From: Streptomyces sp. L2
Lineage (GTDB): Bacteria > Actinomycetota > Actinomycetes > Streptomycetales > Streptomycetaceae
Length of the DNA stretch: 64,000 nucleotides
Assembly (NCBI RefSeq): GCF_004124325.1
Contig: NZ_QBDT01000001.1
Coordinates: 4,464,001 to 4,528,000, forward strand
Direction: 5' to 3'
Shown in pieces: positions 33,220 to 59,007 of this stretch. The position numbers and the translations under genes are program-made. Position 1 is the stretch's first letter. Each line of letters opens with the position of its first letter. The notes below the pieces were generated by a model that was not told the DNA's origin, searched no databases, and saw nothing but the letters and a program-made list of their open reading frames with translations.

Positions 33220-33524
33220 GGGCAGGACCTCTTGTTGTCGGCGGCGCTACGGGCGGACTCGGCCAGGGCGGCGAACTGGCCGGCGAGCGAGGCGATGACG
33301 TCCGGGCACAGCTTGTAGTACGTGTACCGGCCGCACGGCTCGGTCTCCACGACCCCGGCCTCGCGCAGCACCCGCAGGTGGTTGGAGAGGTTGGTCTGCT
33401 TCGCACCCGTCTCCTCCACCAGGTGCGTGGTGCACAGCGTCTCTTGGGCGAGCAGGGTGACGATCTGGAGCCTGAGGGGGTCTGCCAGAACCCGGATCAG
33501 ATCAGTATCGACTGACGTCAGCAT
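33216..33524 (-). CDS. arsR: ArsR-family arsenic-responsive repressor
   Basis: This 102-residue winged-helix protein (VLADPLRLQIVTLLAQETLC, KQTNLSNHLRVLREAGVV) has several cysteines that could bind As(III): Cys in QETLCTTHL, two in EPCGRYTYYKLCPD and one in RSCP at the end. It is coupled to ACR3 by GTGA and divergent from arsC. It probably represses both directions from the 123-bp intergenic region. Confidence 0.93.
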   Translation of the reverse strand: MLTSVDTDLIRVLADPLRLQIVTLLAQETLCTTHLVEETGAKQTNLSNHLRVLREAGVVETEPCGRYTYYKLCPDVIASLAGQFAALAESARSAADNKRSCP

Positions 33525-33647
33525 GGGCTGATACTCTCACATCATTCGTGGCTGACACCAGTCGGAGCTGACTTGTAGGCCCGGCCTGACGTGCTTCGCC
33601 GCTTCGCACCTCGCACCTCGTCCCGTCCCTCAGAAGGAAGAACGCCC

Positions 33648-34097
33648 GTGTCCTCCCGCCCGCTCGCCTCGGTGCTGTTCGTCTGCGTTCACAACGCCGG
33701 ACGTTCGCAGATGGCCGCCGGATTCCTGCACCATCTCGCGGGTGACCGGATCGAGGTCCGCTCCGCCGGCTCCCTCCCCGGTGACCAGGTCAACCCCGCC
33801 GCCGTCGACGCCATGAACGAAGTGGGCATCGACATCTCCCGGGCCGTACCGAAGATCCTGACTGCCGAGGCCGTCCAGGCGTCCGACTACGTCATCACCA
33901 TGGGCTGCGGCGACGCCTGCCCGTACTTCCCCGGAAAGACCTATCTCGACTGGCAGTTGGCCGATCCGGCCGGCCAGGGGCTGGACGCGGTGCGCCCGAT
34001 CCGGGACGAGATCAGGGCGCTCATCGAGGGACTCATCGCCGAGATCGACGTGAAGAACCACAAGAAGCAGAGCAACCAGAAGAAGCTGGAGAGCTGA
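33648..34097 (+). CDS. arsC: Arsenate reductase, low-molecular-weight phosphatase type
   Basis: This 149-residue protein has the phosphatase P-loop CVHNAGRSQ (CX5R) at the start and further cysteines in TMGCGDACPYFPGK that can serve as resolving residues. The catalytic Asp motif is DWQLADP. It reduces arsenate to arsenite. The thioredoxin reductase encoded six bases downstream suggests thioredoxin coupling, although mycothiol is possible in actinomycetes. GTG 33648 follows AGAAGGAAG. The basic tail (KNHKKQSNQKK) is unusual. Confidence 0.95.
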   Translation: MSSRPLASVLFVCVHNAGRSQMAAGFLHHLAGDRIEVRSAGSLPGDQVNPAAVDAMNEVGIDISRAVPKILTAEAVQASDYVITMGCGDACPYFPGKTYLDWQLADPAGQGLDAVRPIRDEIRALIEGLIAEIDVKNHKKQSNQKKLES

Positions 34098-34103
34098 GCG
34101 CAC

Positions 34104-35099
34104 ATGACGAGCACCACGACAGGCGCCGAGGACGTGCGCGAGGTCATCATCATCGGCTCCGGGCCTGCTGGTTACACGGCGGCCCTTTACACCGCCCGTG
34201 CGCAGCTCAGGCCCCTGCTGTTCGGCAGTTCCATATTCGTCGGCGGTTCGCTCACCACGACCACCGAGGTCGAGAACTTCCCCGGCTTCCCAGGCGGCAT
34301 CGACGGCCCCGACCTGATGGACAACATGAGGGCGCAGGCGGAGAGGTTCGGCGCCGAGCTGGTCGACGACGACATCGTCTCCGTGGACCTGACCGATGAC
34401 ATCAAGCTGCTGACGGACTCCAGCGGGACCGTGCACCGCGCCAAGGCCGTGATCATCGCCACCGGCTCCGGCTACCGCAAGCTCGACCTGCCGGGCGAGC
34501 AGGAGCTGTCCGGGCGCGGTGTGTCCTGGTGCGCCACGTGCGACGGGTTCTTCTTCCGTGACCGTGACATCGTCGTGGTCGGCGGCGGTGACACCGCCAT
34601 GGAGGAGGCCACTTTCCTCACCCGCTTCGCCCGCTCCGTCACCGTCGTCCACCGCCGCTCCGCCCTGCGCGCCTCCAAGGCCATGCAGAACCGGGCCTTC
34701 GCCGACGAGAAGATCTACTTCGCCTTCGACAGCGAGATCGCCGAGATCAAGGACAGCGGCGGGATGCTGGCCGGCGTCGTCCTGCGTGACGTCCACACGG
34801 GCGCGATGCGTGACCTCGACGACGTGACGGGGTTGTTCATCGCCATCGGCCACGACCCGCGCACCGAGCTGTTCGCCGGCCAGCTGGAGCTGGACGGTGA
34901 GGGCTACCTCAAGACGCAGGCACCGACGACCCGTACGAGCCTGCCGGGCGTCTTCGGCGCCGGCGACGTGGTGGACCACATCTACCGGCAGGCCATCACC
35001 GCGGCCGGCTCCGGCTGCGCCGCTGCGCTGGACGCCGAGCGGTACCTGGCGGCGCTGGCCGACGTGCCCGCACAGGAGGACCTCGCGCCCGTCGGCTGA
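34104..35099 (+). CDS. Thioredoxin reductase of the ars operon (ArsT-type)
   Basis: This 331-residue FAD/NADPH enzyme has FAD site [16 protein letters not shown], redox centre [14 protein letters not shown] site [14 protein letters not shown] and the C-terminal [16 protein letters not shown]. It is located directly after arsC, so it likely recycles the thioredoxin used by ArsC. It is followed by a strong hairpin. Confidence 0.93.
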
Positions 35100-35228: not shown

Positions 35229-35918
35229 TCAGGCGGCAGACTCGGCCAGTGCCAGTGTCTCCGGCAGCTCCAGTCGTACGGTGCGGTCGCACAGCCGCTC
35301 CACCTGTCCCGGGTCGTGGGAGACGAGGAGGACCGTGCGGTTGCCGCGCAGGGCTGCCACCGACTCCTCGACCGTGTCCCGGCTGCGTTCGTCCAGGGCG
35401 CTGGTGGGTTCGTCCAGCAGGAGAGCCGCCGGTTCCAGGGCCAGGGCGCGGGCCAGGCACAGCCGCTGGCGCTGCCCGGTGGAGAGGGAATGGGCGGAGT
35501 CGTCCAGCCGGTTGTGGACCTCGCTCCACAACCCCGCCTCGCGCAGCGCCTGTTCCATGCGGTCACGCAGGTCCGATTGGGAGGCGCGGACCAGGTGCCG
35601 GAGGCCGAAGAGGGCGTTGTCCATGATGCTTCCGCCGAAGACCACGGGTGTCTGCGGCACCAGGACCACCGTGCTTCGCAGGCCCGCGTCGCCCTTGCCG
35701 TAGCGGATGGCCCGTCCCTGGACCTCCACCTCGCCCTCGCGCTTCAGGCCGTGCGGCAGCAGGTCGACCAGGGCGCGCAGCACCGTGGACTTGCCGGCGC
35801 CGGAGGGACCGCACAGGCCCGTGGTGGAACCGGCCGGCAGCTCGAAGCTGACCGGACCGACCAGCGTTTTGCGGCCGTCGAGAACCCGCAGGTCGCGGAT
35901 CGCTATCACGTTGTCCAT
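35229..35918 (-). CDS. PstB-like ABC ATPase of a phosphate/arsenate importer
   Basis: This 229-residue ATPase has Walker A GPSGAGKST, signature SLSTGQRQRLCLARAL and Walker B LLLDEPTSALDE. It is shorter than housekeeping PstB. ATG 35918 lies inside the end of the fused permease gene (GGAGCACG upstream), so the two are coupled. It is the last gene of the pstS-permease-ATPase operon. In this locus the likely cargo is arsenate or phosphate (inference from context). Confidence 0.85.
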   Translation of the reverse strand: MDNVIAIRDLRVLDGRKTLVGPVSFELPAGSTTGLCGPSGAGKSTVLRALVDLLPHGLKREGEVEVQGRAIRYGKGDAGLRSTVVLVPQTPVVFGGSIMDNALFGLRHLVRASQSDLRDRMEQALREAGLWSEVHNRLDDSAHSLSTGQRQRLCLARALALEPAALLLDEPTSALDERSRDTVEESVAALRGNRTVLLVSHDPGQVERLCDRTVRLELPETLALAESAA

Positions 35919-37729
35919 CGTGCTCCTTCGAAGCGGTTGCGCAGGGCCACGGCCAGGCTGAGGAGTGCCGCGGTGATGAGGACCAGCACCAGGGCGCTGC
36001 CCCATGCCTGGTTCACGGCCTCCGGGGCGCCCGAGTCCTGGGACAGGGTGAAGATGTGCGTCGGCAGCGTCTGCACCGGCGAGTCGACGATCCCGCTGGG
36101 CAGCGCGGGCGCCCCGTAGAACACCGTCGCGGTGAAGAGCAGGGGGGCCGTCTCTCCCGCCGCGCGGGCCAGACCCAGCAGCAGACCCGTGAGCGTGGCC
36201 GGCCAGGTGTAGGGGATGACCACGGAGCGGATGTACTGGGAGCGGGTCAGGCCGAGGGCCAGGGCGCTCTCGGTGAGTTCCGCCGGCATGCTCCGGATGC
36301 GGCCCGCCGTGGTCAGCGCGATGACCGGTACGACCACGGGGACCAGCACGATGGCACCGGCCAGCCAGGAGCGGTCCCAGCCCATGGCCGTGCAGAAGAG
36401 GACGTATCCGGCCAGGCCCAGGAGGATGGTGGGGGTGCCGCCGACGGCGACCGTGATGGTCTCCATCACCCGTGCCGTCTTCGCGGTGGCGTGGACCCCC
36501 ATCAGGATGCCCGCTCCGTAACCCAGGGGCAGTGCGATCAGGGCAGTGGTGGCCAGGAGCAGCAGGGTGCCGAGGATCTGGTCGCTCACACCGCCGCCGG
36601 CCGCGCCGGTGGAGGAGGTGAACCAGAAGGCCGGGTTGAACCCGGAGCTGCCCCGTGTCACGAGGATGGTGAGCATCCCGATGAGGAGCGTGCCCGGCAG
36701 CAGCAGGGCTCCCAGCCTGACCAGGGTCGCGAGCCGGTCCCGTTCGGTGCGCAGCCGGGCGCTGGGCCGGCGGGTGCGCTTGACCGCCTGGCCGTGCGTT
36801 CTGCGGGTGCCCCACACCGTGACCGCGCCCACCAGGGCGAACAGGATGATGCCGAGCGCGCAGAGCGCCGCGAAGTGCGGACCGGACGTTCCCGCGAGCG
36901 TGGGCTCGGGGCCGGCCAGTTTCGTGGTCAGGGTCTGACCGGGGTGCACCAGCGAGGAGACGAAGTCGCCGAACGAGCGCGGAAGCCGCCCGTCGGCCCG
37001 GCCGATCACGAGGAACACCGCGATCGCCTCGCCGAGGGACCTGGCCAGACCGAGCAGGACGGCGTTGCGCATGCCCGACCGGGCCTGCGGCAGCACCGCG
37101 GACCGTACGACTTCACGGCGGGTCAGACCCAGCGAGTAGGCCGCTTCCCGGTAGCGGCCGGGAACGGCGGCCAGGGCGTCCACGCTGACCGCGACGATCG
37201 TCGGCATGATCATCACGGCGAGGACGATGCCGGCGGCGAGCAGGCTGTCACCGCCCGGCACATCGCCCAGCGAACTGACGAACGGCCGGATCACCATGAT
37301 CCCGATGAGGCCGTAGACGATGGACGGCACGGCGGCGAGGAGTTCGACGCTCAGCCGCAGAGGACGGGACAGGTGGGGCGGAAGGTACTCCGACAGCGCG
37401 ATGGCCGCCGACCAGCCGACGGGGACGGCCAGGACGAGCGCGAGGACGCAGACGACGGCCGAGCCATAGATCATGGCCAGGGCGCCGAAGTCGCCGGTCG
37501 TCGGGCTCCAGACGGATTCACCGAGCAGGGAGGCCCAGTCGACGTGACCGCCGGCGAGACCAGTGGCGAGGTATCCGATCAGCACCGCCAGGGCTAGGGC
37601 CACGGAGAACGCCCCGGTGTACACCCACCCCCAGACCCATCTCGCCCGGCCGGGCCGGCCGCCCTCGACGGGCGGCCGCGGCGCAGCGGGTGCGGGCGCC
37701 TCGGCGCGGCGCTCCAGAGTGAGGCTCAC
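35906..37729 (-). CDS. Fused PstC-PstA permease
   Basis: This 607-residue protein joins the two normally separate permease subunits. The N-terminal half is PstC-like with the coupling loop EAAYSLGLTRREVVRSAVLP. The C-terminal half (from about residue 320) is PstA-like with ESALALGLTRSQYIRSVVIP. About twelve membrane helices are present. A linker with basic residues (GQAVKRTRRPSARLRTERDR) joins the halves. ATG 37729 is two bases from the pstS stop. It works with the PstS-like lipoprotein and the ATPase encoded next to it. Confidence 0.9.
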   Translation of the reverse strand: MSLTLERRAEAPAPAAPRPPVEGGRPGRARWVWGWVYTGAFSVALALAVLIGYLATGLAGGHVDWASLLGESVWSPTTGDFGALAMIYGSAVVCVLALVLAVPVGWSAAIALSEYLPPHLSRPLRLSVELLAAVPSIVYGLIGIMVIRPFVSSLGDVPGGDSLLAAGIVLAVMIMPTIVAVSVDALAAVPGRYREAAYSLGLTRREVVRSAVLPQARSGMRNAVLLGLARSLGEAIAVFLVIGRADGRLPRSFGDFVSSLVHPGQTLTTKLAGPEPTLAGTSGPHFAALCALGIILFALVGAVTVWGTRRTHGQAVKRTRRPSARLRTERDRLATLVRLGALLLPGTLLIGMLTILVTRGSSGFNPAFWFTSSTGAAGGGVSDQILGTLLLLATTALIALPLGYGAGILMGVHATAKTARVMETITVAVGGTPTILLGLAGYVLFCTAMGWDRSWLAGAIVLVPVVVPVIALTTAGRIRSMPAELTESALALGLTRSQYIRSVVIPYTWPATLTGLLLGLARAAGETAPLLFTATVFYGAPALPSGIVDSPVQTLPTHIFTLSQDSGAPEAVNQAWGSALVLVLITAALLSLAVALRNRFEGARWTT

Positions 37730-37731
37730 GG

Positions 37732-38652
37732 TCAGAGCCCCATCTGCTTGCGGGTCAGGTAGCCGTGCTTGGGCAGCAGCTTCTGGCCCTGCGGGGAGAG
37801 GACGTAGTCGATGTACTTCTTCGCCTCGCCCTTCGCCTTGCCGTTGGTGATCATGAAGAGCGGGCGAGTCATCGGGTACTTGTCGGAGGCGATGTTCTTG
37901 ATGGTCGGGGCGATGCCGTCCAGCGGTACCGCCACCAGGTCGTCGTGACCGGCGATGAAGCCGGTCGACAGCGGGGCGACGGAACCCTTGGTGGACTCCA
38001 GCTTGTTACGGGTCTCCAGGTTGCCGCCGACGATGGCGTAGTTGCCGGACTGCGGGGGCGCCGGGGCGTGGCCGTTCGCACCGTAGAGGTACTTGTCGAG
38101 CGCCTCGCGGGTGCCGCGGCCGGGCTCCTTGTCGTAGACGAAGACGGCCAGGTCCGGGCCGCCGACCTGCTTCCAGTTGGTGATCTTCCCTTCGAACAGG
38201 CCCTTCACCTGCTCCTTGTCCAGGCTCTTGACGCCGCCGTCGAAGACCTGCTTGGTGATGATGACGCCGACCGCGTCCGCGCCGATCTGCGTCGGCTGGA
38301 AGTCGGTGTTCGGGAACTGCTTGCGGTCCGCGTCGGCGACGGGCTTGGAGCTCAGGGCCACGTCGATCTGGCCCTGGCCGAGCTGGGAGATGCCGCCGGC
38401 GGAACCGCCCTGCGTCGCGACCGTGATCTTCTGGCCCTTGGCCTTCAGGGCCGCGGCGGCGTCCGACGCGACCGGGGCGACGGTGGTCGAACCGCTGGCT
38501 TCCAGCGCGTTGGAGTCGGCCTTGGCGGTGCCCGCGCAGCCCGTCAGCATGGACGAGAGGAGCAGCGCGGCGGACGCGGCGACGCCGCCCTGCACGAGCT
38601 TGCGCGTGCGCGGGTGCGGGGTGTGGCGGGGTTCGGTGGAGACGACAGACAT
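37732..38652 (-). CDS. PstS-like phosphate/arsenate-binding lipoprotein
   Basis: This 306-residue protein has a lipoprotein signal (lipobox LTGC at about residue 38) and a PstS fold: EASGSTTVAPVASDAAAALK, TQGGSAGGISQLGQGQIDVA, and YDKEPGRGTREALDKYLYG. It captures an oxyanion outside the cell for the fused permease. ATG 38652 is clear. Upstream lie one copy of the island's 34-bp element and a PHO-box-like array, which suggests both cluster-specific and phosphate control. Confidence 0.9.
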   Translation of the reverse strand: MSVVSTEPRHTPHPRTRKLVQGGVAASAALLLSSMLTGCAGTAKADSNALEASGSTTVAPVASDAAAALKAKGQKITVATQGGSAGGISQLGQGQIDVALSSKPVADADRKQFPNTDFQPTQIGADAVGVIITKQVFDGGVKSLDKEQVKGLFEGKITNWKQVGGPDLAVFVYDKEPGRGTREALDKYLYGANGHAPAPPQSGNYAIVGGNLETRNKLESTKGSVAPLSTGFIAGHDDLVAVPLDGIAPTIKNIASDKYPMTRPLFMITNGKAKGEAKKYIDYVLSPQGQKLLPKHGYLTRKQMGL

Positions 38653-38762
38653 GGGTGTGCCTTTGCTGGTGATGGTGGGATGAGAGAGAGCCGAGGGCTG
38701 GTCGACCGCCCTTGCGATCAAGAGTCTGCTCAGTGGAGGACCCGTACAGAAGGGGTTCCGGG

Positions 38763-38796
38763 TGGCAACAACCGCACGCGGCACCCACCTGCCTCG
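38763..38796 (-). promoter_or_regulatory. 34-bp cluster element, copy a (upstream of pstS)
   Basis: On the + strand it reads TGGCA, 11 bases, then CGGCACCCACCTGCCTCG. Copies b (44027-44060) and c (47485-47518) have the same spacing and orientation. Within it, GGCA-N6-TGCC forms an inverted repeat on the minus strand. It lies about 110 bases upstream of the pstS start. Confidence 0.6.
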
Positions 38797-38820
38797 AAGT
38801 CCGGCCGAACACTCGAAGTC

Positions 38821-38875
38821 CGGCCGAACAACCGTCGAGAACCGTCTGAACAACAGGCCAACAAGCTGTGAACAG
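38821..38875 (-). promoter_or_regulatory. Candidate PHO box (11-base direct repeats)
   Basis: On the minus strand, five consecutive 11-base units read CTGTTCACAGC, TTGTTGGCCTG, TTGTTCAGACG, GTTCTCGACGG and TTGTTCGGCCG. The Streptomyces PhoP site consists of 11-base units related to GTTCACC. It lies upstream of the pstS-like gene, as in known phosphate operons. Confidence 0.5.
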
Positions 38876-38923
38876 GCTGGTCGGCGGGAGCGAACGGTCC
38901 GGCGGCGGACCTAGGGTGATCAC

Positions 38924-39370
38924 ATGCCCGTAGAACAGGTGACCGGTCACTCCTCGGGGCGTCTGCCTCTCATCGACGAGGATCCGACCTGCGGGCCGCC
39001 CCTGGAGGTGGACCCGCTGCCCAGGGAACGGGCCGAGGCCCTCGCCAGGAACCTGAAGTGCGTCGTCGATCCGACCCGGCTGCAGATCCTCAGCGTTCTG
39101 CTCATGGCACCCGACGGTGAGGCGTGTGTCTGCGATCTGACGCCGCTTCTGGGGCTCGCCCAGCCCACCGTCAGCTACCACATGAAGCTCCTGGTGAAGG
39201 CCGGCCTGGTGAGCCGCCGCAAGCGCGGCACGTGGGCCTGGTACGCGGTCACGCCCCAACGCAGGGCCACTCTCCACGCGTTGATCTGGGGCGGGGACGA
39301 AGTCTCGGAGGCGAACGCGGCGGAGAGCACGGCTGAGAGCGCGGCGCCGCACGCGGCGGGGAACGCGTAG
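38924..39370 (+). CDS. ArsR-family regulator divergent from pstS
   Basis: The product has 148 residues. The winged helix spans residues about 40-120: VVDPTRLQILSVLLM, AQPTVSYHMKLLVKAGLVSR. The metal box is GEACVCDLTPL, the classical ArsR As(III) site on the first recognition helix. It has a 30-residue extension at each end. It is divergent from the pst operon and likely controls it in response to arsenic. Confidence 0.9.
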   Translation: MPVEQVTGHSSGRLPLIDEDPTCGPPLEVDPLPRERAEALARNLKCVVDPTRLQILSVLLMAPDGEACVCDLTPLLGLAQPTVSYHMKLLVKAGLVSRRKRGTWAWYAVTPQRRATLHALIWGGDEVSEANAAESTAESAAPHAAGNA

Positions 39371-39376
39371 AGCCCC

Positions 39377-39406
39377 GTGCGGGCCATGGGAATCCATGGC
39401 CCGCAC
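39377..39406. terminator. Bidirectional terminator
   Basis: Arms GTGCGGGCCATGG and CCATGGCCCGCAC with loop GAAT, between the converging arsR and the biosynthetic operon. Confidence 0.75.
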
Positions 39407-39446
39407 AGGGCTCGGCACAAGCGCGGCGGGGTCTTCGATGCGGGTG

Positions 39447-40154
39447 TCAGACGGTGACCGCCGCGTGCGCGATCACCTCCGCCGTGAACGCCTTGATCAG
39501 CTGGTGGACCTTGCCGGGCTCGGAGACCAGCTCCGGCTGGAAGAGCGTGCCGATGAAGAACGGGTGCCCGGGGACCTCGGCCGCTCGCGGGGCACCCTCC
39601 GTGTCCCAGCCGCTGAACAGCACCCCGGCACGGGCGAGTTGATCGACGAAGGTCGCATTGAGGCCGTACTTGCAGTGGTAGGTCTCCGTGGTGAGCTCGG
39701 CGCCGTCGTAGACGGCCGCGAGCCGGCTGCCCGCCGTGAGCAGCAGGGGTGCCTGTTCACCCGCCAGGCAGCAGGTGAGCGGCACGATCAGCGGGGTGGA
39801 CGCCTCGGGGTCGTACTGGACGTCGTCGGCGTCGGTGAGACCGACGACGGTGCGGGCGTACTCGATCAGCGCGTGCTGGAAGCCGCCGCAGGTGCCCAGG
39901 TAGGGGATGCCGTTCTCGCGGGCGTGGCGTACGGCGGCCAGGACGCCGTTCTTGTTCTCGTACGGCGAGCCGGGGACGACCCAGATGCCGTCGAACCCGT
40001 CGAACGACGCCGCGCCGGTGATCGTCTCGGTGGGCACCCACTCGGTGTCCACGTCGAGTTCGGCGCGGAAGCGGTCGAGCCGGGCGTGCGCCGGGGACTT
40101 GCCGTGGTCCCCGATCAGGGCCACGCGTGGGCGCGGGCCGGTGGCGGTGGTCAT
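39447..40154 (-). CDS. CTP-synthase-like glutamine amidotransferase domain protein, catalytic His replaced
   Basis: This 235-residue stand-alone class I amidotransferase domain is closest in pattern to the C-terminal half of CTP synthase. The nucleophile loop is intact (YLGTCGGFQHALIEYAR). The His-Glu box, normally HPE in FHPEF, reads TLFQPELVS, so the catalytic His is Gln. It may therefore not hydrolyse glutamine. ATG 40154 overlaps the upstream stop (ATGA). It is the last gene of the five-gene operon. A CTP-synthase-like gene is also reported in Streptomyces arseno-organic clusters, as I recall. Confidence 0.85.
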   Translation of the reverse strand: MTTATGPRPRVALIGDHGKSPAHARLDRFRAELDVDTEWVPTETITGAASFDGFDGIWVVPGSPYENKNGVLAAVRHARENGIPYLGTCGGFQHALIEYARTVVGLTDADDVQYDPEASTPLIVPLTCCLAGEQAPLLLTAGSRLAAVYDGAELTTETYHCKYGLNATFVDQLARAGVLFSGWDTEGAPRAAEVPGHPFFIGTLFQPELVSEPGKVHQLIKAFTAEVIAHAAVTV

Positions 40155-40504
40155 GCGGTGTGCTCCTGGGAGGGGTCGAGGGCGCGTCCGAGCCGGACGA
40201 AGCCGTGCGGGTGGAGGTGGGCGACGAGGCGGCCGTCGCGCCGGTCGGTGGTGGAGGCGCCGCCGAGGAACAGCAGCGGTCCGTCGCCGTGCGGCAGGAG
40301 GGACTCGGGGAGCACCTCCTGCGGTTCGGCCGTGATGTTGGTGACGGTCAGTACGTGAACCGAGCCGTCGCGGCTGCTGCGGACCTCCGCCGTCAGGGCC
40401 GGTCCGGCGTCCAGTTCGCGGCGGGTGGCCTCGGCGGCGAAGGCGCCGGCGAACAGGGCGCCGCCGGGCGTGGTGGTTGTTGTAGGGCTGGGGGCGAGGG
40501 TCAC
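40151..40504 (-). CDS. Unknown 117-residue protein of the arsenic biosynthesis operon
   Basis: This small soluble protein has a Thr-rich N-terminus and a beta-rich middle: SVHVLTVTNITAEPQEVLPE, then GPLLFLGGAS. It overlaps both neighbours by four bases (ATGA on each side), which ties it tightly to the iPGM-like and amidotransferase-like genes. I recognise no family and no catalytic motif. GTG 40504 is the start. Confidence 0.75.
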   Translation of the reverse strand: MTLAPSPTTTTTPGGALFAGAFAAEATRRELDAGPALTAEVRSSRDGSVHVLTVTNITAEPQEVLPESLLPHGDGPLLFLGGASTTDRRDGRLVAHLHPHGFVRLGRALDPSQEHTA

Positions 40505-42033
40505 AGCAAGCTCCGTCCGGTCATGGCGGGGCCGGCCGGGCGGCCCAGCAGGGCGAGCACGGTGGGGGCGATGTCCGCGAGGCTGCCGCCGTCCCGGAGG
40601 GTGCCGGGCAGCAGCTGTCCGGGGGCGGGGACCACGGCTGCCGGTACCGGGTTGGTGGTGTGGCCGCCGTACGCCAGCGGTGTGCCGTCGGGGCCCGGCT
40701 TGGACATCCGCTCGGCGTTCCCGTGGTCTCCGACGAGGAGCACCCAGCGTCCGGTGGCCGCGGCGGCGGTCAGGATCCGGTCGACCTGGCCGTCGGTGTG
40801 CTCGGCGGCTCGGACGGTCGCGTCGTGGTCGCCGGTGTGGCCGACCACGTCGATGTTGGCCAGGTTGGCCACCACCAGGGCGACGTCGTCCCGGCCGGCA
40901 GCCCGGGCGACCGCGTCGGTGACGAGGGCGAGGTTCATCTCGGGCCGTGCCGTGTAGTCGGGCGCCTCGTCCGCGAGGATCCGGACGTGCTCCTCGACCT
41001 CGCGGCGGCGGTCGTCGCGCCCGTTCAGGTAGTAGGTGACGTGCTCGAACTTCTCCTGCTCGGCGATCCGCACGGACCTCAGCCCCGCTTGCTCCAGCTG
41101 GTCCGCGAGTCCGCCGGAGGCGTCGGCGCGGCCCACCAGGGCGGGGATGGCGGCGGTGGTGTCGTACTGGGTCAGGGAGAGGACGCGTACGTCGCTGTCG
41201 GCCAGGTGCAGGACCAGGTCGTCGGCGAGCTGCTGGATGCGGTCGCTGCGGAAGTTGGTGAACAGGACGGCGTCGCCGTCGCGCACGGTCGTCAGCGGTT
41301 CGCCCGCCGCGTCGGTGAGTACGGTGGGGGTCACCCAGACGTCGCCGTCGCCGGCGCCCGCCAGGACCTGCCCGTGGTCGCGGGCCCGCGCTCCCCGGCC
41401 GTCGGCGACGGCCAGGGTGACCTTGGCGGTCAGCTCCAGGTCGCCGCTCTTGTCGAGGGCGTAGCCACGGCCGGAGACAGTGGCCAGCCGGCCCACGCCG
41501 GTGTCGGCGCAGAACTCCTCGACCCGGCGCAGGTAGTGGCCGGCCGTCCGGTCGGCGACGTCCCGGCCGTCGGTGACGGCGTGCACCCAGACCTTCCGGA
41601 CGCCACGGGCGGCGGCGATCGACAGCAGTTCGTGGAGATGGTCGACATGGGCGTGGATCTGCCCGTCGGAGACCAGTCCGATCAGGTGCAGGGCGCCGCC
41701 CTGGGCCGCGAGCGCGTCGAGCGTCTCGGTCAGGCGCGGGTTGCCGCGCAGGACTCCGGTGTCGATCTGGCGCTGCACGAGGACGCTGTCGTAGTCCAGC
41801 GGCCGGCCGGCCCCGATGACCATGTGGCCGATCTCGGAGTTGCCGACGGTGCCGGGCAGCAGTCCGACGTGCTCACCGGACGCCTCGACCAGGGTGGCGG
41901 GGTGCTTGGCCCGGATGCCGTCGAGGACCGGGGTGCGGGCGGCGGCCAGGGCGTTGCCGGGGCCGGGCTCGGCGTGCCCCCATCCGTCGAGGACGAGCAG
42001 GATGCCGGGGGTGCCGGGGGTGGCTTCGCTCAT
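40501..42033 (-). CDS. iPGM-family mutase, candidate arsenopyruvate mutase
   Basis: This 510-residue member of the cofactor-independent phosphoglycerate mutase family has all hallmark sites: LVLDGWG (metal Asp), GNSEIGHM (Ser nucleophile), [35 protein letters not shown] and GGHTTNPVP. Streptomyces normally use the cofactor-dependent enzyme in glycolysis. Together with the adjoining EPSPS paralogue, this matches the pair proposed to make arsenoenolpyruvate and rearrange it to arsonopyruvate in S. lividans/coelicolor. ATG 42033 overlaps the EPSPS stop (ATGA). The family is certain; the arsenic substrate is inferred. Confidence 0.85.
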
Positions 42034-43331
42034 CGCAGGGTGTCCAGGGTCTGCCAGAAGGCCGGGAAGGACTTGGCGACGCAGCCCGGGTCCTTGATGA
42101 CGACGCCGGGGGTGCGCAGGCCCATCACCGCGAACGTCATGGCGATGCGGTGGTCGTCGTAGGTGTCGATGACCGCGGCGTGCGGTGTGCCGCCGTGGAT
42201 GGTCATGGCGTCGTCGTACTCGTCGACCGTGATGCCCATCTTGCGCAGTTCGGTGGTGACGGCCGCGATGCGGTCGCACTCCTTGACCCGGAGGCTGGCG
42301 ATGTTGGTGATGCGGGTCGGGCCCTCGGCGAAGGCGGCCACGGCGGCGAGCGAGGGGACGACGTCCGGCATGGCCTCCATGTCGACCTCGATGCCGTGCA
42401 GGTCCCCGCCCTTGACCGTGACGGTGTCCTCGGTCACCTCGGTCCGCGCGCCCATCCGGCCGAGCACCTCGACCAGGCCGACGTCGCCCTGGTGGGAGGT
42501 GGAGCCGATGCCCGGAATGGTGACCCGGCCACCGAGGATCGCGGCGGCCGCGATGAAGTACGACAGGCCCGAGGCGTCCGGCTCGACGATCGCGTGGCCG
42601 CCCTTGAAGGACTGCCCGGCCGGCACCTTGAACCAGCGGTAGCCGTCGCGTTCGACGGTGATGCCGTGCTCGGCGAGGGTGGCCAGGGTCATCTCGACGT
42701 ACGGCTTGGAGACCAGCTCGTCGACGATCTCGATCTCGGTGTCCTGCTTCGCGAGCACGGAGCTGATCAGCAGCGAGGAGGTGTACTGCGAGGAGACCGC
42801 CCCGGAGATCCTCGTCCGGCCGCCGGCGAAGTTGCCCCCGGTGACACGGATCGGCGGGGAGCCGTTGCCGCGCACCGCGACCGCGTCGACGCCGAGGGCG
42901 GGCAGCGCGGCGAGCAGGTCGCCGAACGGCCGCTCCTGCATGCGGGTGTTGCCGGTGATGGTGGTGGTGCCCTCGGCGAGACCCGCCATGGAGATCAGGA
43001 ACCGCAGGGGCGTGCCGGCGCCGCCGACGAAAATGTCCTCCTGCGGGGCCGTCATCGGCTTGCCGGTCGGGGTGAAGGTGATGCGGTGCGCGTCGTGGTC
43101 GATGTCGGCGCGGACATGACCGAAGGACTCGACGGCCCGGCTGAAGTAGACGGTGTCGTCGGAGACGAGGGCGCCGTCGATCACGCCCTCCTTGCCGGAC
43201 AGGGCCGCGATGGCGATCTGCCGGTTCGTGTAGCTCTTGGAGCCGAGGACCTTCACGTCGTGGTCGATGCCGGCCAGCGTCTCGACGGTGAGCTCGCCGG
43301 CATTCAGGCGGGGGTCGTTGTTGCCGCTCAT
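42030..43331 (-). CDS. EPSP-synthase (AroA) paralogue, candidate arsenoenolpyruvate synthase
   Basis: This 433-residue protein of normal EPSPS length has the motifs [22 protein letters not shown] (instead of the usual NAGTAxRPL), [32 protein letters not shown] and TYDDHRIAM. The changed NAGT-type loop, and Cys in the KESDR-type motif, mark it as a paralogue rather than the shikimate enzyme. Its neighbours (iPGM paralogue, ars genes) match the arseno-organic gene set, where it would couple arsenate with phosphoenolpyruvate. The final assignment is inference. Confidence 0.85.
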
Positions 43332-43365
43332 GAGGTGGATCTCCTCGCGAAGTGTGTGATCTGCG

Positions 43366-43875
43366 TCACGCGGGAACGGGGCCCGAGCCGGACGGGGCGT
43401 CGGGAAGCTGGGGGGTGGCGACGATGCGCCAGTGGGCCAGTGGAGGGCTCGAATTCAGTGCGCGCAGGCAGATTTCCCATGCGGCGGAAATCGCTGCGGA
43501 AGGGCTGCGTGTGCGGTGAAAGAAAGTCAGTTCGATGCGACCGGGCACGGCTTGAGCGTGGACATGCTCAAGGTCGTCGCTGGGCTTTGCAGACGCCCAC
43601 ACGATGTCGGTGACCGCGGCGGCCTCCAGTCTTCTGTGTGTGGCGGCGTCGGTCGCGACGAGGGTGGCGGTGGCCATGAGCATGGGCCCTCCCGGCCGGG
43701 CGGCGAGTCCTGGTACGGACCACACGTGCTGGTCGGCTTCGGCCTGGGTGACCTCGCCGTACAACCCGGTGTGACGGCATTTGGGGCCGCAGCCGTGCCC
43801 CCCGGCGGGCGAGAAGCCCAGGGCGATGGCGGCGGCCCTGTTGGCCAGGCGCAGGAGGCTGCGCGCAGCGGACAT
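43366..43875 (-). CDS. Unknown 169-residue protein, first gene of the biosynthetic operon
   Basis: This soluble protein has a short Cys motif ([12 protein letters not shown]) near residue 30 and a mixed alpha/beta core: [20 protein letters not shown], then [20 protein letters not shown] recognise no family. It lies 34 bases upstream of the EPSPS paralogue, behind the cluster element copy b, so it should be co-transcribed with the arsenic enzymes. The two Cys-x3-Cys residues plus His could bind a metal or arsenite (speculative). Confidence 0.75.
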
Positions 43876-44226
43876 GGCTGTCCTCCGTGTGGTGGGTGGA
43901 TGGGTTCCCTTGAGAAAAGGGGGTGGGTAGGGGGTGACTGGGGGCGGAATCCGTGGTGGTGGATTCCCGAACACCCTGTGATCACCAGTCTGGTGAGTCC
44001 GCCCGTACGGCGGAAGGGATATCCGCTGGCATGAACCGCGCACGGCAACCACCTGCCTGGGAGCGGCAATTTCCGGCCGCCCGGCGGTCCGCGCGAGGGG
44101 CGTGATCAAGCCTGCCCACACTGTGAGCGAGCCTTGTCGCAGAGTCACTGACCTGCAAAGATCGGCGCTCGCCAATGGGATGCCGAGCGTGTCTCGGCCA
44201 TTGAGACGCTGACCGGGGGGTTCGCT
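43876..44226. other. Divergent promoter region of the biosynthetic operon and its regulator
   Basis: 351 bases without a gene. They contain the 34-bp cluster element (44027-44060) and a short inverted repeat around 43986-43995 (ACCAGTCTGGT). No other motif was recognised. Confidence 0.6.
44027..44060 (-). promoter_or_regulatory. 34-bp cluster element, copy b (upstream of the EPSPS operon)
   Basis: TGGCA, 11 bases, then CGGCAACCACCTGCCTGG on the + strand. The spacing and orientation toward a minus-strand operon are the same as in copies a and c. Confidence 0.6.
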
Positions 44227-45210
44227 GTGCTGGCGAGTTTGGGGCTCAACGCGGACGCGGAGGCTGTCTATCGGCTGATGCTCACACACCAGGACTGGGG
44301 GGTCACCGAGATCGCGTGCCACCTGTCCCGATCCGAGACGGAGGTACGCGAGGCGCTTGACCAGCTGGCCGAGCTCAACCTCCTGCGGCGCTCACTCCGG
44401 GCCCCGGGCGGGGTCCGACCGGTCAGCCCCAACCTGGGCTTCCAGCTTCTGCTCCAGCGCCAGCAGGCGGAGCTGCTCGCCCAGCAGCAGCAGTTCGCGG
44501 AGTCCCAGGCCGCCATCAGCAAACTGCTCGACGAGTACTCCGAGTTGCGCACCGGTGAGCGACACGGCGTGGAGTACCTCAAGGGCATCGACGCGATCCA
44601 GGCCCGCTTGGAGGAGCTGGCGCACCGCAGCACGAGCGAGTGCCTGTCCTTCATGCCGGGCGGTGCGCAGTCCGCGGCGAGCCTGGAGGCGAGCCGGCCC
44701 CTCGACGCGGACCTGATGCGGCGCGGCGTGCGCATGCTGACCGTCTACCTGGACAGCGTCCGCAACGACCCGGCCACGGTCGAATACGCGTACTGGCTGC
44801 ACGACAACGGCGGCGAGGTGCGCACCGTGCCCGCTCTGCCGTTGCGCATGGTCCTCTTCGACCGCGAGGTCGCCCTGCTGCCGATCGACCCGGACAACAC
44901 CAAGAAGGGTGCCGTGCAGTTGACCGGCCCTGGTGTGATGTCCGCTCTGGCGGCCCTGTTCGAGCAGGTCTGGGAGTGCGCGGCGCCGATCGGCAGCTCC
45001 CGCGACCGGGACGAGGCCGGCCTGACCGCGCAGGAGCGGGAGGTGCTGCGCCAGCTCACCTCGGGCGCCACCGACGAGATCGCGGCGAAGAAGCTCGGCA
45101 TCGGACTGCGCACGGAGCGCCGGATCGTCTCCGAACTGATGGGCCGCCTGGGGGCACGCAGCCGGTTCGAGGCGGGGGTGCTCGCGGCCAGGGCAGGCTG
45201 GACCGACTGA
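44227..45210 (+). CDS. LuxR-type regulator with TrmB-like N-terminus, candidate cluster regulator
   Basis: This 327-residue protein has an N-terminal winged helix (residues about 5-65, WGVTEIACHLSRSETEVREAL), a glutamine-rich helical linker, a central domain with no clear family, and a C-terminal LuxR helix-turn-helix (LTAQEREVLRQLTSGATDEI). The architecture is common among secondary metabolite regulators in Streptomyces. GTG 44227 begins the conserved N-terminus. It is divergent from the EPSPS operon, with a copy of the 34-bp element between them, so it is the leading candidate to bind that element (inference). Confidence 0.85.
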   Translation: MLASLGLNADAEAVYRLMLTHQDWGVTEIACHLSRSETEVREALDQLAELNLLRRSLRAPGGVRPVSPNLGFQLLLQRQQAELLAQQQQFAESQAAISKLLDEYSELRTGERHGVEYLKGIDAIQARLEELAHRSTSECLSFMPGGAQSAASLEASRPLDADLMRRGVRMLTVYLDSVRNDPATVEYAYWLHDNGGEVRTVPALPLRMVLFDREVALLPIDPDNTKKGAVQLTGPGVMSALAALFEQVWECAAPIGSSRDRDEAGLTAQEREVLRQLTSGATDEIAAKKLGIGLRTERRIVSELMGRLGARSRFEAGVLAARAGWTD

Positions 45211-45256
45211 CCACCGTTCCACGGCGAAGGGCCGGCCCCCGGACCCCGCCAACGCG

Positions 45257-45290
45257 GCCGGTCCGGTGCGCGTGGGCGCACCGGACCGGC
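45257..45290. terminator. Bidirectional terminator
   Basis: Fourteen-base perfect arms (GCCGGTCCGGTGCG and complement) with loop CGTGGG, between converging genes. Confidence 0.75.
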
Positions 45291-45328
45291 TCGTCGGGGC
45301 TGTGGAGTTGTGGCTCGGGCGGCAAGGG

Positions 45329-46939
45329 TCAGCCGCAGCAGCCGCCTTCGGGCTGCAGGGGCTTGATCGGCTCGTAGGCGGTGCCGCCCATCAGCTTCGC
45401 CTTCAGGCGGCCGATCGCGGTCGCCGGCTCCTCCTCGGCGCTCGCGCCCAGAGCCTCACGCCGCGCCTGCCCGAAGGCGGCGTGCAACTCCGCGACCGTC
45501 GGACGCAGTTCGGTGTCGGTCACCAGGACGACGGAACGGATCTGCCGTGGCCCGAAGCCGCGCAGCCGCTTGGCCTCGTCGACACCCGGACCGGCCTCGA
45601 TGGACGTGATCCCCTCGGCGTAGGCCTCGCGCAGCGGCCGGTCGAGCACGATCTCGAAGTACACGCCGCTGCGCTCACCCAGGGCCTCGTAGTCGAACCC
45701 GGCCCACTTCACGAAGAGCCGCTTGCCCTGCTTGACGGTCACCGCGACCCCGGCCAGCAGGTCGTCCTTGTGCACGAGGTACGCGCGGACATCCGCACCG
45801 CCCTCGACCAGCGCGGTGAGAAGGGCGCCGATGTGCGCCTCGTCCTCGCCGCCGCCGTACTTCTGCCGGTTCTGCTTGATGAGTTCGGAGATACGGCCGA
45901 TCAGCGGGCGCAGTTCCTCGCGGTCCTTGCGCTCGATGCGGGTCCCGGAGTTCGCCGCGCGATCCCTGTCCTCCTTGACCCGGCGCCGCTTGCGGGCGGG
46001 CAGCGAGGCCAGGTAGGCCTCGTAGCTGTCGTGCTGGAGTTCGAGGACGTTGTTCTGGCCGTGGAAGGCGATGTCACCTCCGTACGCCTGCAGCGCGAGG
46101 GCGAGCACGTCGCTGTACGCGTTTTCGTGCAGCCACGGCGCGGTGATCGAGCGGATGCCGGCCTCGACGGCGGCCGGGACGATCCGGTCGACGAGGTCGG
46201 CGACGAGCAGCGGGTCCTCGACGGACGCGGCCGCCTCGGAGCGGTAGCCGAGCGGCGAACCCAGCAGGAGGGAGGGGAAGAAGACGTCGGTGCCGAGCGC
46301 CTCGACCGTGTCGTTGGTGGAGTCGCAGCACGAGGTGGCCGAGCAGCAGGCGACGGCGCCGGACTTCGGCTGCCAGCCCAGGTAGGTACGGGGGTCGGCG
46401 TCCACGATCGGGGCGGCGTCGAAGACGTACCCCGGCAGGAAGGCGAGGTCTCCCTCGCCGCGGTCGGCGATCGTGTGCCAGGGCTTGGCGCCCTCCAGGC
46501 TGTCCGCGGTGGCCTTGAGCCAGTGCGCCTGCACGTAGGGACTGGGTTCGGTGGCCTGCGGGATCCCGCCGAGCGCCGCCACTGCCTCGTCCAGGGAGAG
46601 GCCGGTGCGGACCTCGGCCGGGGCGGCCTGCTCCTCCTGCGTCCCGCAGCAGCCGCTCTCGACGGCCGGCTCGGGGTTCGCGGTGCCGCAGCAGCTGGAC
46701 TCGGCCGCCGGCGCCGTTTCCTCAGCCTTGGTGCCGCAGCAGGAGGATGCGGAGGCTTCCACGGGCCGGGGCTCGTCCGACTTGCTGCCGCAGCAGGCGG
46801 CGGCCGGTTCTTCGGTGCTTCCCTTGACCGGTTCGACCGGCCCGGCGGCCGAGCAGCATCCGGTGGAGGTGGTCTCGACGACCGGGAGGGCCGCGACGGG
46901 CGCCTCTTCGGCCGTGCTGCAGCAGGCGGCGGTGGTCAT
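45329..46939 (-). CDS. GNAT/FemAB-like acyltransferase with multiple Cys-Cys tags
   Basis: The product has 536 residues. The first 115 residues carry six Cys-Cys motifs at near-regular spacing (AACCSTA, TGCCSAA, AACCGSK, SSCCGTK, SSCCGTA, SGCCGTQ). Two more (VACCSATSCCDS) lie at about 195-205, and the protein ends GGCCG. The body (about 120-500) matches the predicted N-acyltransferase family related to FemAB: HGQNNVLELQHDSYEAYLAS, ARKRRRVKEDRDRA, FVKWAGFDYEALGERSGVYF. Vicinal thiols bind As(III) tightly, so the tags may hold the arsenical substrate or buffer arsenite. It lies downstream of the GAGWD peptide gene on the same strand and is likely co-transcribed. Confidence 0.8.
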   Translation of the reverse strand: MTTAACCSTAEEAPVAALPVVETTSTGCCSAAGPVEPVKGSTEEPAAACCGSKSDEPRPVEASASSCCGTKAEETAPAAESSCCGTANPEPAVESGCCGTQEEQAAPAEVRTGLSLDEAVAALGGIPQATEPSPYVQAHWLKATADSLEGAKPWHTIADRGEGDLAFLPGYVFDAAPIVDADPRTYLGWQPKSGAVACCSATSCCDSTNDTVEALGTDVFFPSLLLGSPLGYRSEAAASVEDPLLVADLVDRIVPAAVEAGIRSITAPWLHENAYSDVLALALQAYGGDIAFHGQNNVLELQHDSYEAYLASLPARKRRRVKEDRDRAANSGTRIERKDREELRPLIGRISELIKQNRQKYGGGEDEAHIGALLTALVEGGADVRAYLVHKDDLLAGVAVTVKQGKRLFVKWAGFDYEALGERSGVYFEIVLDRPLREAYAEGITSIEAGPGVDEAKRLRGFGPRQIRSVVLVTDTELRPTVAELHAAFGQARREALGASAEEEPATAIGRLKAKLMGGTAYEPIKPLQPEGGCCG

Positions 46940-47018
46940 GGGGTGCTCTCCTTGTGGGTCAGCGGGGGTTCAGCGGCTGGTGCTCGGGGTGTCGTGTGCG
47001 GGAACGGCGGAGGGAGTC

Positions 47019-47345
47019 TCAGTCCCAGCCGGCGCCGGTGGTGGAGGGGGCGGCGGTGGCCGAGTCCCAGCCGGCGCCGTCGGTGGAGGAGGTGGCGACG
47101 GGCGAGTCCCAGCCGGCACCCGTGGTGGAGTCGGCGGCCACGGTGTCCCAGCCGGCGCCGTCGGACGGGGCGGTGGCGGTGGCCGAGCCGGAACCGGTGC
47201 CGTCGGTGGTCAGCGGAGCCACGTCCCAGCCGGCGCCGGCGAGCGAGGGACGGATGTCCGCGCCGAGGGCCGAGCCCGTGCCGAGTCCGATCACGGTGAC
47301 CAGCGCGGCGGTGGCAAGACGCATCGAGGTACGCGAAAAAGACAT
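47019..47345 (-). CDS. Secreted peptide with five GAGWD repeats
   Basis: The product has 108 residues. A Sec signal peptide (about residues 1-29, ATAALVTVIGLGTGSALGA) is followed by a low-complexity Ser/Thr/Ala/Asp-rich region with GAGWD five times: LAGAGWDV, SDGAGWDT, TTGAGWDS, TDGAGWDS and a final TTGAGWD that is also the C-terminus. The mature part has no Cys. The pattern of a short identical core at near-regular distance resembles multi-core precursor peptides, but a structural secreted repeat protein is equally possible. ATG 47345 begins a good signal peptide. The gene lies 79 bases upstream of the Cys-tag acyltransferase gene, behind cluster element copy c. Confidence 0.75.
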   Translation of the reverse strand: MSFSRTSMRLATAALVTVIGLGTGSALGADIRPSLAGAGWDVAPLTTDGTGSGSATATAPSDGAGWDTVAADSTTGAGWDSPVATSSTDGAGWDSATAAPSTTGAGWD

Positions 47346-47587: not shown

Positions 47588-47938
47588 TCAGACGGCGACA
47601 GGCTGTCCGGCCGGGTCGAGCGCCTGGCAGAGCACGCTCATGCTCTCGGGCACGATCCGGTAGTAGGTCTGCCGGCCGCGCCGTTCACGGTCCAGGAAGC
47701 CCGCCTCGTAGAGCACCTTCAGGTGGTGCGTGACGGTCGGCTGGGCCAGGCCCAGCGGTTCGGTCAGATCGCAGGTGCATGCTTCGCCGCCGGGCTGGGT
47801 GCGGATGAGCCCGAGCAGACGGAGGCGGGTGGCGTCCGCGACCACCTTCAGGGCGGTGGCGAGGTCGTCGGCGGCCTCGGGAGTGAGGGGACCGGCGAGC
47901 ACGGGGGAGCAGCACAGCTCCGAGATCGGCGTAGGCAT
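47588..47938 (-). CDS. ArsR-family regulator divergent from the DUF318 permease
   Basis: This 116-residue winged-helix protein (VADATRLRLLGLIRTQPGG, AQPTVTHHLKVLYEAGFL) has the arsenic box GEACTCDLTEP and an N-terminal Cys pair in SELCCSPV. ATG 47938 is used; ATG 47959 in the same frame is an alternative. It is divergent from the ArsP-like permease gene. The three CATCTATGA motifs between them are its likely operators. Confidence 0.9.
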   Translation of the reverse strand: MPTPISELCCSPVLAGPLTPEAADDLATALKVVADATRLRLLGLIRTQPGGEACTCDLTEPLGLAQPTVTHHLKVLYEAGFLDRERRGRQTYYRIVPESMSVLCQALDPAGQPVAV

Positions 47939-47956
47939 ATCTGATTCAACGACGTC

Positions 47957-48041
47957 CATCTATGAATTGTTCCACCAAACTCATTGACAGTCATCTATGA
48001 GTCGGGCAGTCTCTAATCCATCGACAGCCGTCTATGAATTG
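47957..48041. promoter_or_regulatory. ArsR operator array and promoter for the ArsP-like gene
   Basis: Three copies of (CA/CG)TCTATGA start at 47957, 47992 and 48029. TTGACA at 47984 and CAGTCT 17 bases later form a plausible promoter overlapping the middle copy. The same motif forms a perfect palindrome at 53103-53132. Confidence 0.65.
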
Positions 48042-48056
48042 CTGGAGCCCTCCGTG

Positions 48057-49209: not shown

Positions 49210-49593
49210 TCACTCGCAGCCGGACGTCCGGACCCTCGTCCGCATGCCGTCGAGCGGCCCCATCAGGTACTCGATGCGCTCCGGACGGACGTAGTAGTAG
49301 ACCTCGGTCGCGCGCCGCTCCGAGGCAAGGATGCCAGCCTCCCTCAGCTTGCGCAGATGGTGGCTGATGGTCGGGCCCGTGAGGTCGAACTCCGCCGCGA
49401 TCTCCCCCATGCAGACCTCGCCCGCAGGGCAGCAGGCCACAATGCTGGCGATCCGCAGCCGCACCGGATCCGCCAGCGCCTTGAACACGGCGGACAACTC
49501 CTCGGCCTGGTCGGGCGTGATGGGCGCGGAACAGCAGGATCCGGGCGGGCGGGATCCGGGCGGGGCGACGTCCGTGGTCAAGGGCTCGATCAT
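49210..49593 (-). CDS. ArsR-family regulator
   Basis: This 127-residue winged-helix protein (ALADPVRLRIASIVACCPAG, TGPTISHHLRKLREAGIL) has three cysteine clusters: GSCCSAP near residue 20, ACCPAGEVCMGEI at the first recognition helix and SGCE at the end. It faces the permease gene from the opposite strand. ATG 49593 is chosen because the Cys-Cys start module resembles its paralogues. It is the fourth ArsR-type gene of the island. Confidence 0.9.
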   Translation of the reverse strand: MIEPLTTDVAPPGSRPPGSCCSAPITPDQAEELSAVFKALADPVRLRIASIVACCPAGEVCMGEIAAEFDLTGPTISHHLRKLREAGILASERRATEVYYYVRPERIEYLMGPLDGMRTRVRTSGCE

Positions 49594-49820
49594 GGCGCCC
49601 AATGTGACCGATGGCCGTGCGTTCCGTCCAGAGGCGGCGTGGCCGAGCACGTCGGTTCGCCACGTGAGTGCCGGGCGCAGGTGTCACCGCATAGACGCGT
49701 CGTGAGTTCCATCGCGGGGGCCACGAACCGTTGGTGAACAGGCTCCAGTACGCGCTCGGTCGGGCGATGTCAGTGGTGCTCCGTAGCCTGGTGAGGCAGG
49801 TACCACAGGGAGGGAAGCCC

Positions 49821-58945: not shown

Positions 58946-59007
58946 GTCTCCGCCTTGCCTGACCGGCTGTGCCCTTGAGGGTTGCTGAACAAGCGGGCCG
59001 GCGTGGG

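What the first reader, a model, noticed from the sequence alone, without database searches (positions are those of the whole stretch)
35229..47345. Compact arsenic natural-product locus without PKS or decarboxylase genes
A five-gene, mostly overlapping operon (43875 to 39447) holds an EPSPS paralogue with a changed PEP/anion loop, an iPGM paralogue, a CTP-synthase-like amidotransferase domain and two unknown proteins. A Pst-type importer and ars genes surround it. The EPSPS/iPGM pair is the one proposed for arsenoenolpyruvate formation and rearrangement in S. lividans/coelicolor. The polyketide and decarboxylase genes of those clusters, as I recall them, are absent. A GAGWD repeat peptide, a Cys-Cys acyltransferase and an aminotransferase are present instead. 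The product may be a new arsenical, possibly an amino acid or peptide type.
Basis: partly seen in the sequence, partly recalled or inferred. Interest (0 to 1): 0.85.

Follow-up and report, generated by a model that had tools for sequence, protein, structure and literature searches.

The report
Conserved arsenic amino-acid gene cluster
A soil bacterium carries a conserved set of genes that probably builds arsenic into an unusual amino acid and then couples it to something else, a different branch from the one arsenic product known from this enzyme pair.

Summary
A five-gene operon (43875-39447, minus strand) encodes an EPSPS paralogue and the genome's only iPGM; the EPSPS groups with arsenic-locus copies, not with housekeeping AroA. 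The locus recurs: 15 loci share aminotransferase, ArsR genes, ArsP, GAGWD peptide, FemX-like transferase, regulator, EPSPS, iPGM and CTP-synthase-like genes. In 28 EPSPS-iPGM loci, decarboxylase and aminotransferase exclude each other: decarboxylase 11/11 type B, 0/17 types A and C; aminotransferase 0/11 and 17/17. The A and C aminotransferases form one clade. The 'acyltransferase' folds like FemX, a tRNA-dependent transferase; two relatives outside type A follow a radical SAM gene, one of them scored as arsinothricin ArsL. Best reading: arsenate to arsonopyruvate, transamination to arsonoalanine, then tRNA-dependent aminoacylation. The 'amidotransferase' lacks the catalytic His, as do the 120 relatives examined. 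The repeat peptide is tightly linked (all 10 type-A genomes; single matches in four others) and unexplained. No product has been measured. New variant of a known kind.

The parts
53329..54534 (+). PLP aminotransferase, aspartate-aminotransferase-like (likely GTG start at 53329; ORF opens at 53128); proposed arsonopyruvate transaminase
   Evidence: PF00155 246 bits; nearest solved structures named aspartate aminotransferases; clade with type-C copies; 15/15 A, 2/2 C, 0/11 B; start chosen by eye
49210..49650 (-). ArsR-type repressor
   Evidence: ORF; conserved in place in type A; named ArsR/SmtB in the annotated plasmid homologue
47997..49121 (+). ArsP permease, candidate organoarsenical exporter
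   Evidence: PF03773 131 bits; 15/15 A, 0/2 C, 1/11 B weak (29%); export function recalled, not tested
47588..47959 (-). ArsR-type repressor
47019..47345 (-). 108-aa peptide with hydrophobic N-terminal stretch and five GAGWD repeats
45329..46939 (-). FemX-like double-GNAT transferase with Cys-Cys-rich N-terminal tail
44227..45210 (+). LuxR/TrmB-type regulator, shared with type C
   Evidence: PF00196 25.6 bits, just over its cut-off; 15/15 A, 2/2 C, 0/11 B
43366..43875 (-). 169-aa protein of unknown function, found only in type A; HGCGPKC motif and a C-terminal domain that looks ferredoxin-like; shorter and more distant in three divergent loci
   Evidence: no Pfam or NCBIfam hit; model pLDDT 66.8, no Foldseek match below 0.001
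42030..43331 (-). EPSPS paralogue, BsnM-like, proposed arsenoenolpyruvate-forming enzyme
40501..42033 (-). iPGM paralogue, BsnN-like, proposed arsenoenolpyruvate-to-arsonopyruvate mutase
40151..40504 (-). 117-aa protein; its homologue is fused to the C-terminus of the CTP-synthase-like protein in two type-B genomes
   Evidence: 38% and 35% over about 90 residues; not found by tblastn in L011
39447..40154 (-). CTP-synthase C-terminal-like protein (PRK06186 type), Cys kept, catalytic His replaced by Gln
   Evidence: NF004836 254 bits, just below its cut-off of 260
38924..39370 (+). ArsR-type repressor
37732..38652 (-). PstS-type phosphate/arsenate-binding protein
   Evidence: TIGR02136 162 bits, below its cut-off 207; start
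35906..37729 (-). fused PstC-PstA permease
   Evidence: PF00528, two stretches
35229..35918 (-). PstB ATPase
   Evidence: PF00005; start
34104..35099 (+). thioredoxin reductase
   Evidence: TIGR01292 370 bits over cut-off; in the 14 type-A loci
33591..34097 (+). ArsC-type arsenate reductase
   Evidence: PF01451; homologue named ArsC in the plasmid record
32110..33524 (-). ACR3 arsenite exporter (32110-33219) and ArsR (33216-33524)
   Evidence: PF01758 194 bits

Best explanation
The locus is a dedicated arsenic natural-product cluster of the EPSPS-iPGM (bsnMN) kind that takes a transamination branch. Arsenate enters through the Pst importer (inferred). The EPSPS paralogue moves the enolpyruvyl group (from EPSP) onto arsenate, giving arsenoenolpyruvate; the iPGM paralogue rearranges it to arsonopyruvate. 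These two steps are inferred from homology and from the bsn gene disruptions in S. lividans. In place of decarboxylation, the aminotransferase converts arsonopyruvate to arsonoalanine, an aspartate analogue (inferred). The FemX-like enzyme then couples an amino acid from an aminoacyl-tRNA to it, giving an arsonoalanine peptide (inferred from fold, precedent and co-occurrence). ArsP exports the organoarsenical (inferred); the ArsR, ArsC, TrxB and ACR3 genes respond to arsenic and protect the cell. The role of the GAGWD peptide, p169, p117 and the CTP-synthase-like protein is unknown; the last is not a normal glutaminase.
Confidence: 0.5

Rival explanations
1. Arsenic-peptide (RiPP-like) reading: the GAGWD protein is a multi-core precursor, and the FemX-like enzyme attaches the arsenical amino acid, or an amino acid from tRNA, to its Trp-Asp repeats before or during export.
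For: GAGWD peptide directly upstream of the transferase in 15/15 type-A loci and not seen in the 13 B and C stretches. 72 repeats in 14 loci are 69 GAGWD, 2 GAGRD, 1 GAAWD, written with 18 different 15-mers, so the protein sequence is what is kept. GAGWD pairs in 14/392 genomes: all 10 type-A genomes, plus 4 with one match each.
Against: The FemX-like family also occurs beside arsL-type genes in G065 and G085, where no GAGWD peptide was seen. The N-terminus looks like a Sec signal (hydropathy and eye only), unusual for a cytosolic modification substrate. No RiPP enzyme family hit among the proteins scanned.
Confidence: 0.15
2. Detoxification island: the EPSPS-iPGM pair only traps arsenate as a less toxic C-As compound that is exported; aminotransferase and transferase act on other substrates.
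For: Several arsR genes, arsC, ACR3, ArsP and trxB; the review says bisenarsan is much less toxic than arsenate and that its synthesis may be a detoxification mechanism.
Against: Aminotransferase and FemX-like genes are kept in 15/15 loci and the aminotransferase form is shared with type C; ordinary ars operons do without EPSPS-iPGM (recalled). The two readings are not exclusive.
Confidence: 0.2
3. Arsonopyruvate is processed in another way (reduction, or decarboxylation by an unrelated enzyme elsewhere) and the aminotransferase serves as an amino-donor recycler or a resistance enzyme.
For: Aminotransferase assignment is by homology to aspartate aminotransferase only.
Against: No decarboxylase homologue in the genome beyond a partial 31% match; no reductase gene in the operon; mutual exclusion with the decarboxylase.
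Confidence: 0.12
4. Ordinary duplicates of shikimate and glycolysis enzymes without an arsenic role.
For: Active-site motifs are kept.
Against: Separate AroA elsewhere, clade membership, recurring ars-gene context of the 28 loci.
Confidence: 0.03

Closest known systems
bsn (bisenarsan) cluster of Streptomyces lividans/coelicolor
   Same: EPSPS (bsnM) plus iPGM (bsnN), arsenic-resistance and arsenic-regulation genes (review)
   Different: No PKS, KASIII or phosphonopyruvate decarboxylase (bsnJ); has aminotransferase, FemX-like transferase, ArsP, GAGWD peptide, p169. Compared through type-B loci, which match bsn by gene content; the S. lividans locus itself was not fetched
Phosphonoalamide pathway (PnaA-PnaD)
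   Same: Works like it: C-heteroatom bond formed on a PEP-derived enol, then an aspartate-aminotransferase-type enzyme turns the keto acid into an aspartate analogue; type C also has ATP-grasp proteins, as PnaB/PnaC are
   Different: EPSPS-iPGM in place of PEP mutase; arsenic in place of phosphorus; type A has a FemX-like enzyme and no type-C ATP-grasp gene
tRNA-dependent GNAT-fold transferases DhpH-C/DhpK (dehydrophos) and Sba18/Sbb17/Orf11 (streptothricin type)
   Same: Double-GNAT FemX fold; precedent for adding an amino acid from tRNA to a phosphonate amino acid
   Different: No sequence similarity detected by profile; Cys-Cys tail; catalytic Lys not mapped
Arsinothricin clusters (arsQML)
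   Same: An arsenical amino-acid pathway (passages); in two genomes of the genus an ArsL-type gene is directly followed by a homologue of the window's FemX-like protein
   Different: C-As bond by radical SAM ArsL from arsenite; no EPSPS-iPGM pair

Membership tests
EPSPS-iPGM (bsnMN) arsonopyruvate clusters | EPSPS paralogue grouping with arsenic-locus EPSPS apart from housekeeping AroA | tested here: met
   28 arsenic-locus rows on one side of a branch (96/96) against 12 other EPSPS rows
EPSPS-iPGM (bsnMN) arsonopyruvate clusters | adjacent iPGM paralogue in an arsenic-gene context | tested here: met
EPSPS-iPGM (bsnMN) arsonopyruvate clusters | enzymatic formation of arsonopyruvate from arsenate | not testable with these tools
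   needs enzymes and arsenic speciation
bisenarsan (bsn) cluster | phosphonopyruvate decarboxylase (bsnJ) | tested here: not met
   absent in the locus and in the genome except a 31% partial match; query was a type-B protein, not BsnJ itself
bisenarsan (bsn) cluster | PKS gene | tested here: not met
   0/15 type-A stretches
arsinothricin arsQML cluster | ArsL radical SAM enzyme | tested here: inconclusive
   none recognised among the window proteins scanned; the genome was not searched for ArsL
FemABX / tRNA-dependent GNAT-fold transferases | double-GNAT FemX fold | tested here: met
FemABX / tRNA-dependent GNAT-fold transferases | catalytic Lys equivalent to FemX Lys305 / DhpH-C Lys329 | not tested
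   no residue-level structural alignment available; the alignment has near-invariant Lys at, among others, model positions 299 and 345, unmapped
FemABX / tRNA-dependent GNAT-fold transferases | use of aminoacyl-tRNA | not testable with these tools
   biochemical
class I glutamine amidotransferases (CTP-synthase-like protein) | Cys-His-Glu triad | tested here: not met
   Cys89 and Glu208 kept, His is Gln206 in 28/28 locus proteins; Gln in 119 and Glu in 1 of the 120 best relatives listed of 6557
phosphonoalanine-type transaminase branch | aspartate-aminotransferase-superfamily enzyme in the cluster | tested here: met
phosphonoalanine-type transaminase branch | activity on the C-heteroatom keto acid | not testable with these tools
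   biochemical
ribosomal peptide (RiPP) precursor | short repeat peptide genetically linked to a possible modifying enzyme | tested here: met
ribosomal peptide (RiPP) precursor | post-translational modification | not testable with these tools
   needs mass spectrometry

The most novel reading that the evidence does not exclude
The FemX-like enzyme loads arsonoalanine (or an arsenical dipeptide) onto the Trp-Asp repeats of the GAGWD protein, which is then secreted: an arsenic-bearing ribosomally made peptide, with the repeat protein either as the product or as a scaffold from which the arsenical is released.
Probability: 0.1. Interest if true: 0.95.

Novelty: new variant of a known kind. Interest (0 to 1): 0.68.

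Why it matters
Only one product of the EPSPS-iPGM route to C-As bonds, bisenarsan, is described in the texts I could read. This locus type predicts a second branch point at arsonopyruvate, by transamination, that parallels phosphonoalanine in phosphonate metabolism. It points to arsenical amino acids or peptides as a class in Streptomyces and names the genes to delete. It also links two unrelated arsenic pathways (EPSPS-iPGM and ArsL) through one transferase family, so far in two genomes, and it brings an unexplained, tightly linked repeat peptide.

Tried and rejected
Housekeeping duplicates: rejected. Arsenic-specific loss of the glutaminase His: rejected, since Gln206 and Cys89, Cys128 and Cys161 also mark the 120 listed relatives (119 Gln, 1 Glu; 120/120 for each Cys); only these 120 of 6557 were examined. 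GAGWD pairs outside type A: four genomes with one match each. In the loci read, one lies in a 137-codon and one in a 657-codon stop-to-stop stretch, and two showed no open frame with both repeats; I take them as chance but did not study them further. GAGWD-like peptide beside the arsL-type genes: none seen among small ORFs with a ribosome-site-like motif. Sequence-level FemX match by profile: none. A wider search for the FemX-like family in the class gave only two type-A genomes of 394. Four further plasmid records match the transferase weakly (27-33%) and were not followed. p169 fold: model 66.8 pLDDT, no Foldseek match under E 0.001. Phylum-wide iPGM search: 5 of 396 genomes, two of the window's genus and three 1.8-Mb genomes at 41-42% identity, not followed. 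G272 and G213 carry an iPGM without EPSPS nearby and were left out of the 28 loci. Literature searched: arsenoenolpyruvate, arsonopyruvate, bisenarsan, arsonoalanine, arsonoacetaldehyde, GAGWD, organoarsenic gene clusters, EvoMining/SLI_1096 and arsL. Nothing describing this locus type was seen in the listings, but Cruz-Morales 2016 is not held and Hoshino 2023 was not looked up (known through the review), so 'not in print' is not claimed.
Full report
What is there. The window lies in an 8.07 Mb genome of a genus that named relatives show to be Streptomyces. The minus-strand operon reads p169, EPSPS, iPGM, p117, CTP-synthase-like; the last four genes overlap by four bases each. Around it lie a regulator, a FemX-like transferase, the GAGWD peptide, ArsR genes, ArsP, an aminotransferase, a Pst importer, TrxB, ArsC and ACR3.

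Arsenic enzymes, not housekeeping ones. The genome has four EPSP_synthase-family matches: the window copy, one at C1:2385811 and two more distant ones. The C1:2385811 copy is 35% identical to the window's and groups with the housekeeping-type rows. The iPGM is the only one in the genome by PF06415. In the EPSPS tree, 28 arsenic-locus copies fall on one side of a branch (96/96) from 12 other copies; types A and B are not each resolved as clades. Active-site motifs are kept, while the PEP-side loop reads GGAGTP, GAAGTP or GNAGTP in the ten rows printed. iPGM keeps the motifs of the catalytic Ser and metal ligands of 1ejj (alignment; roles recalled). K195 stands in 28 of 28 rows where 1ejj and the four comparison iPGMs printed have Arg.

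A recurring locus type. In 392 genomes of the genus an iPGM match at E 1e-30 or better occurs in 25: 10 type A (the window's kind), 11 type B, 2 type C and 2 without EPSPS nearby. Four further type-A loci came (six more were duplicates) and one from a 316-kb plasmid, annotated only as aroA, gpmI, GNAT, hypothetical, giving 15 A, 11 B and 2 C. Type B has PKS (10/11; G152 is cut by the contig end), KASIII (10/11) and decarboxylase (11/11), and fits bsn by content. Type C has ATP-grasp, an M28 peptidase, an ABC exporter and a GNAT protein with a partial, sub-cut-off FemAB_like match (G225 scanned; G310 by similarity).

The branch point. Decarboxylase: 11/11 B, 0/15 A, 0/2 C. Aminotransferase: 0/11 B, 15/15 A, 2/2 C. 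The A and C aminotransferases form one clade (96/85; 97% of bootstraps) against 18 other aminotransferases from eight genomes, in a tree that carries a long-branch warning for some of those others. The window's genome has only a partial 31% decarboxylase match. In the review, arsonopyruvate is the shared precursor, bsnJ decarboxylates it, and bsnMN is widespread with diverse surroundings (passages, section 8). In phosphonate metabolism PnaA, an aspartate-aminotransferase-type enzyme, turns phosphonopyruvate into phosphonoalanine (passages). By analogy I infer arsonoalanine; it is not shown.

The GAGWD peptide. It is present in all 15 type-A loci and was not seen in the 13 B or C stretches. Across 392 genomes, GAGWD pairs occur in all 10 type-A genomes and, as single matches, in four others. 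72 repeats from 14 loci are nearly all GAGWD while the DNA varies (18 forms), which means protein-level conservation (the plasmid locus was not counted there). The N-terminus has a hydrophobic stretch like a signal peptide (by hydropathy only). 20 relatives were found in the protein database; those that bear a name are Streptomyces hypothetical proteins. Its role is open.

The CTP-synthase-like protein. Cys89 and Glu208 are kept but the His of the glutaminase triad is Gln in 28/28. Gln is also found in 119 of the 120 relatives listed and Glu in one, with three invariant Cys. So it is not a standard amidotransferase, and this is not an arsenic-specific change as far as these 120 show.

Verdict. 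The locus is a conserved, decarboxylase-free and PKS-free variant of the EPSPS-iPGM arsenic clusters. The most likely product class is an arsonoalanine-derived amino acid or peptide. Nothing here shows a product.

Noticed in passing
G065:C1:38331-43165 (L097), G085:C119:14331-24019 (L099, L100): Radical SAM gene (ArsL over cut-off in G085; G065 by likeness) followed by a FemX-like gene and an arsM-type gene; in G085 also a CobW-like GTPase, an ATP-grasp-type protein and apparent methionine-salvage genes (these last named by eye): a possible actinobacterial arsinothricin-type peptide cluster.
   Followed up: partly
L162, L163, L164, L165 (G104, G310, G053, G225): A third AroA-like protein, about 41% identical to the window EPSPS, forms its own clade apart from arsenic-locus and housekeeping EPSPS in 4 of 8 genomes searched; three of the four neighbourhoods were viewed and show no arsenic genes by eye.
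   Followed up: partly
type B, C and divergent A loci (for example L090:37421-39946): A molybdopterin oxidoreductase accompanies 10/11 B, 2/2 C and 3/15 A loci; possibly an arsenite oxidase, not tested.
   Followed up: partly
window 40151-40504; G089 and G184 CTP-synthase-like proteins: A p117 homologue is fused to the C-terminus of the CTP-synthase-like protein in two type-B genomes, so the two probably work together.
   Followed up: partly
window 58408-58992: A 194-aa ORF matching only the end of the ACR3/SBF profile: a likely remnant second arsenite exporter.
   Followed up: no
window 45329-46939, 47997-49121: Cys-Cys pairs recur in the transferase, mostly in its tail (5 to 9 per protein in type A), and one lies in an ArsP loop; a plausible arsenite-binding feature.
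   Followed up: partly
P0036/P0041 and P0053/P0061: The two proteins of each pair list the same longest contig length, so some genomes may carry two copies of the FemX-like gene.
   Followed up: no
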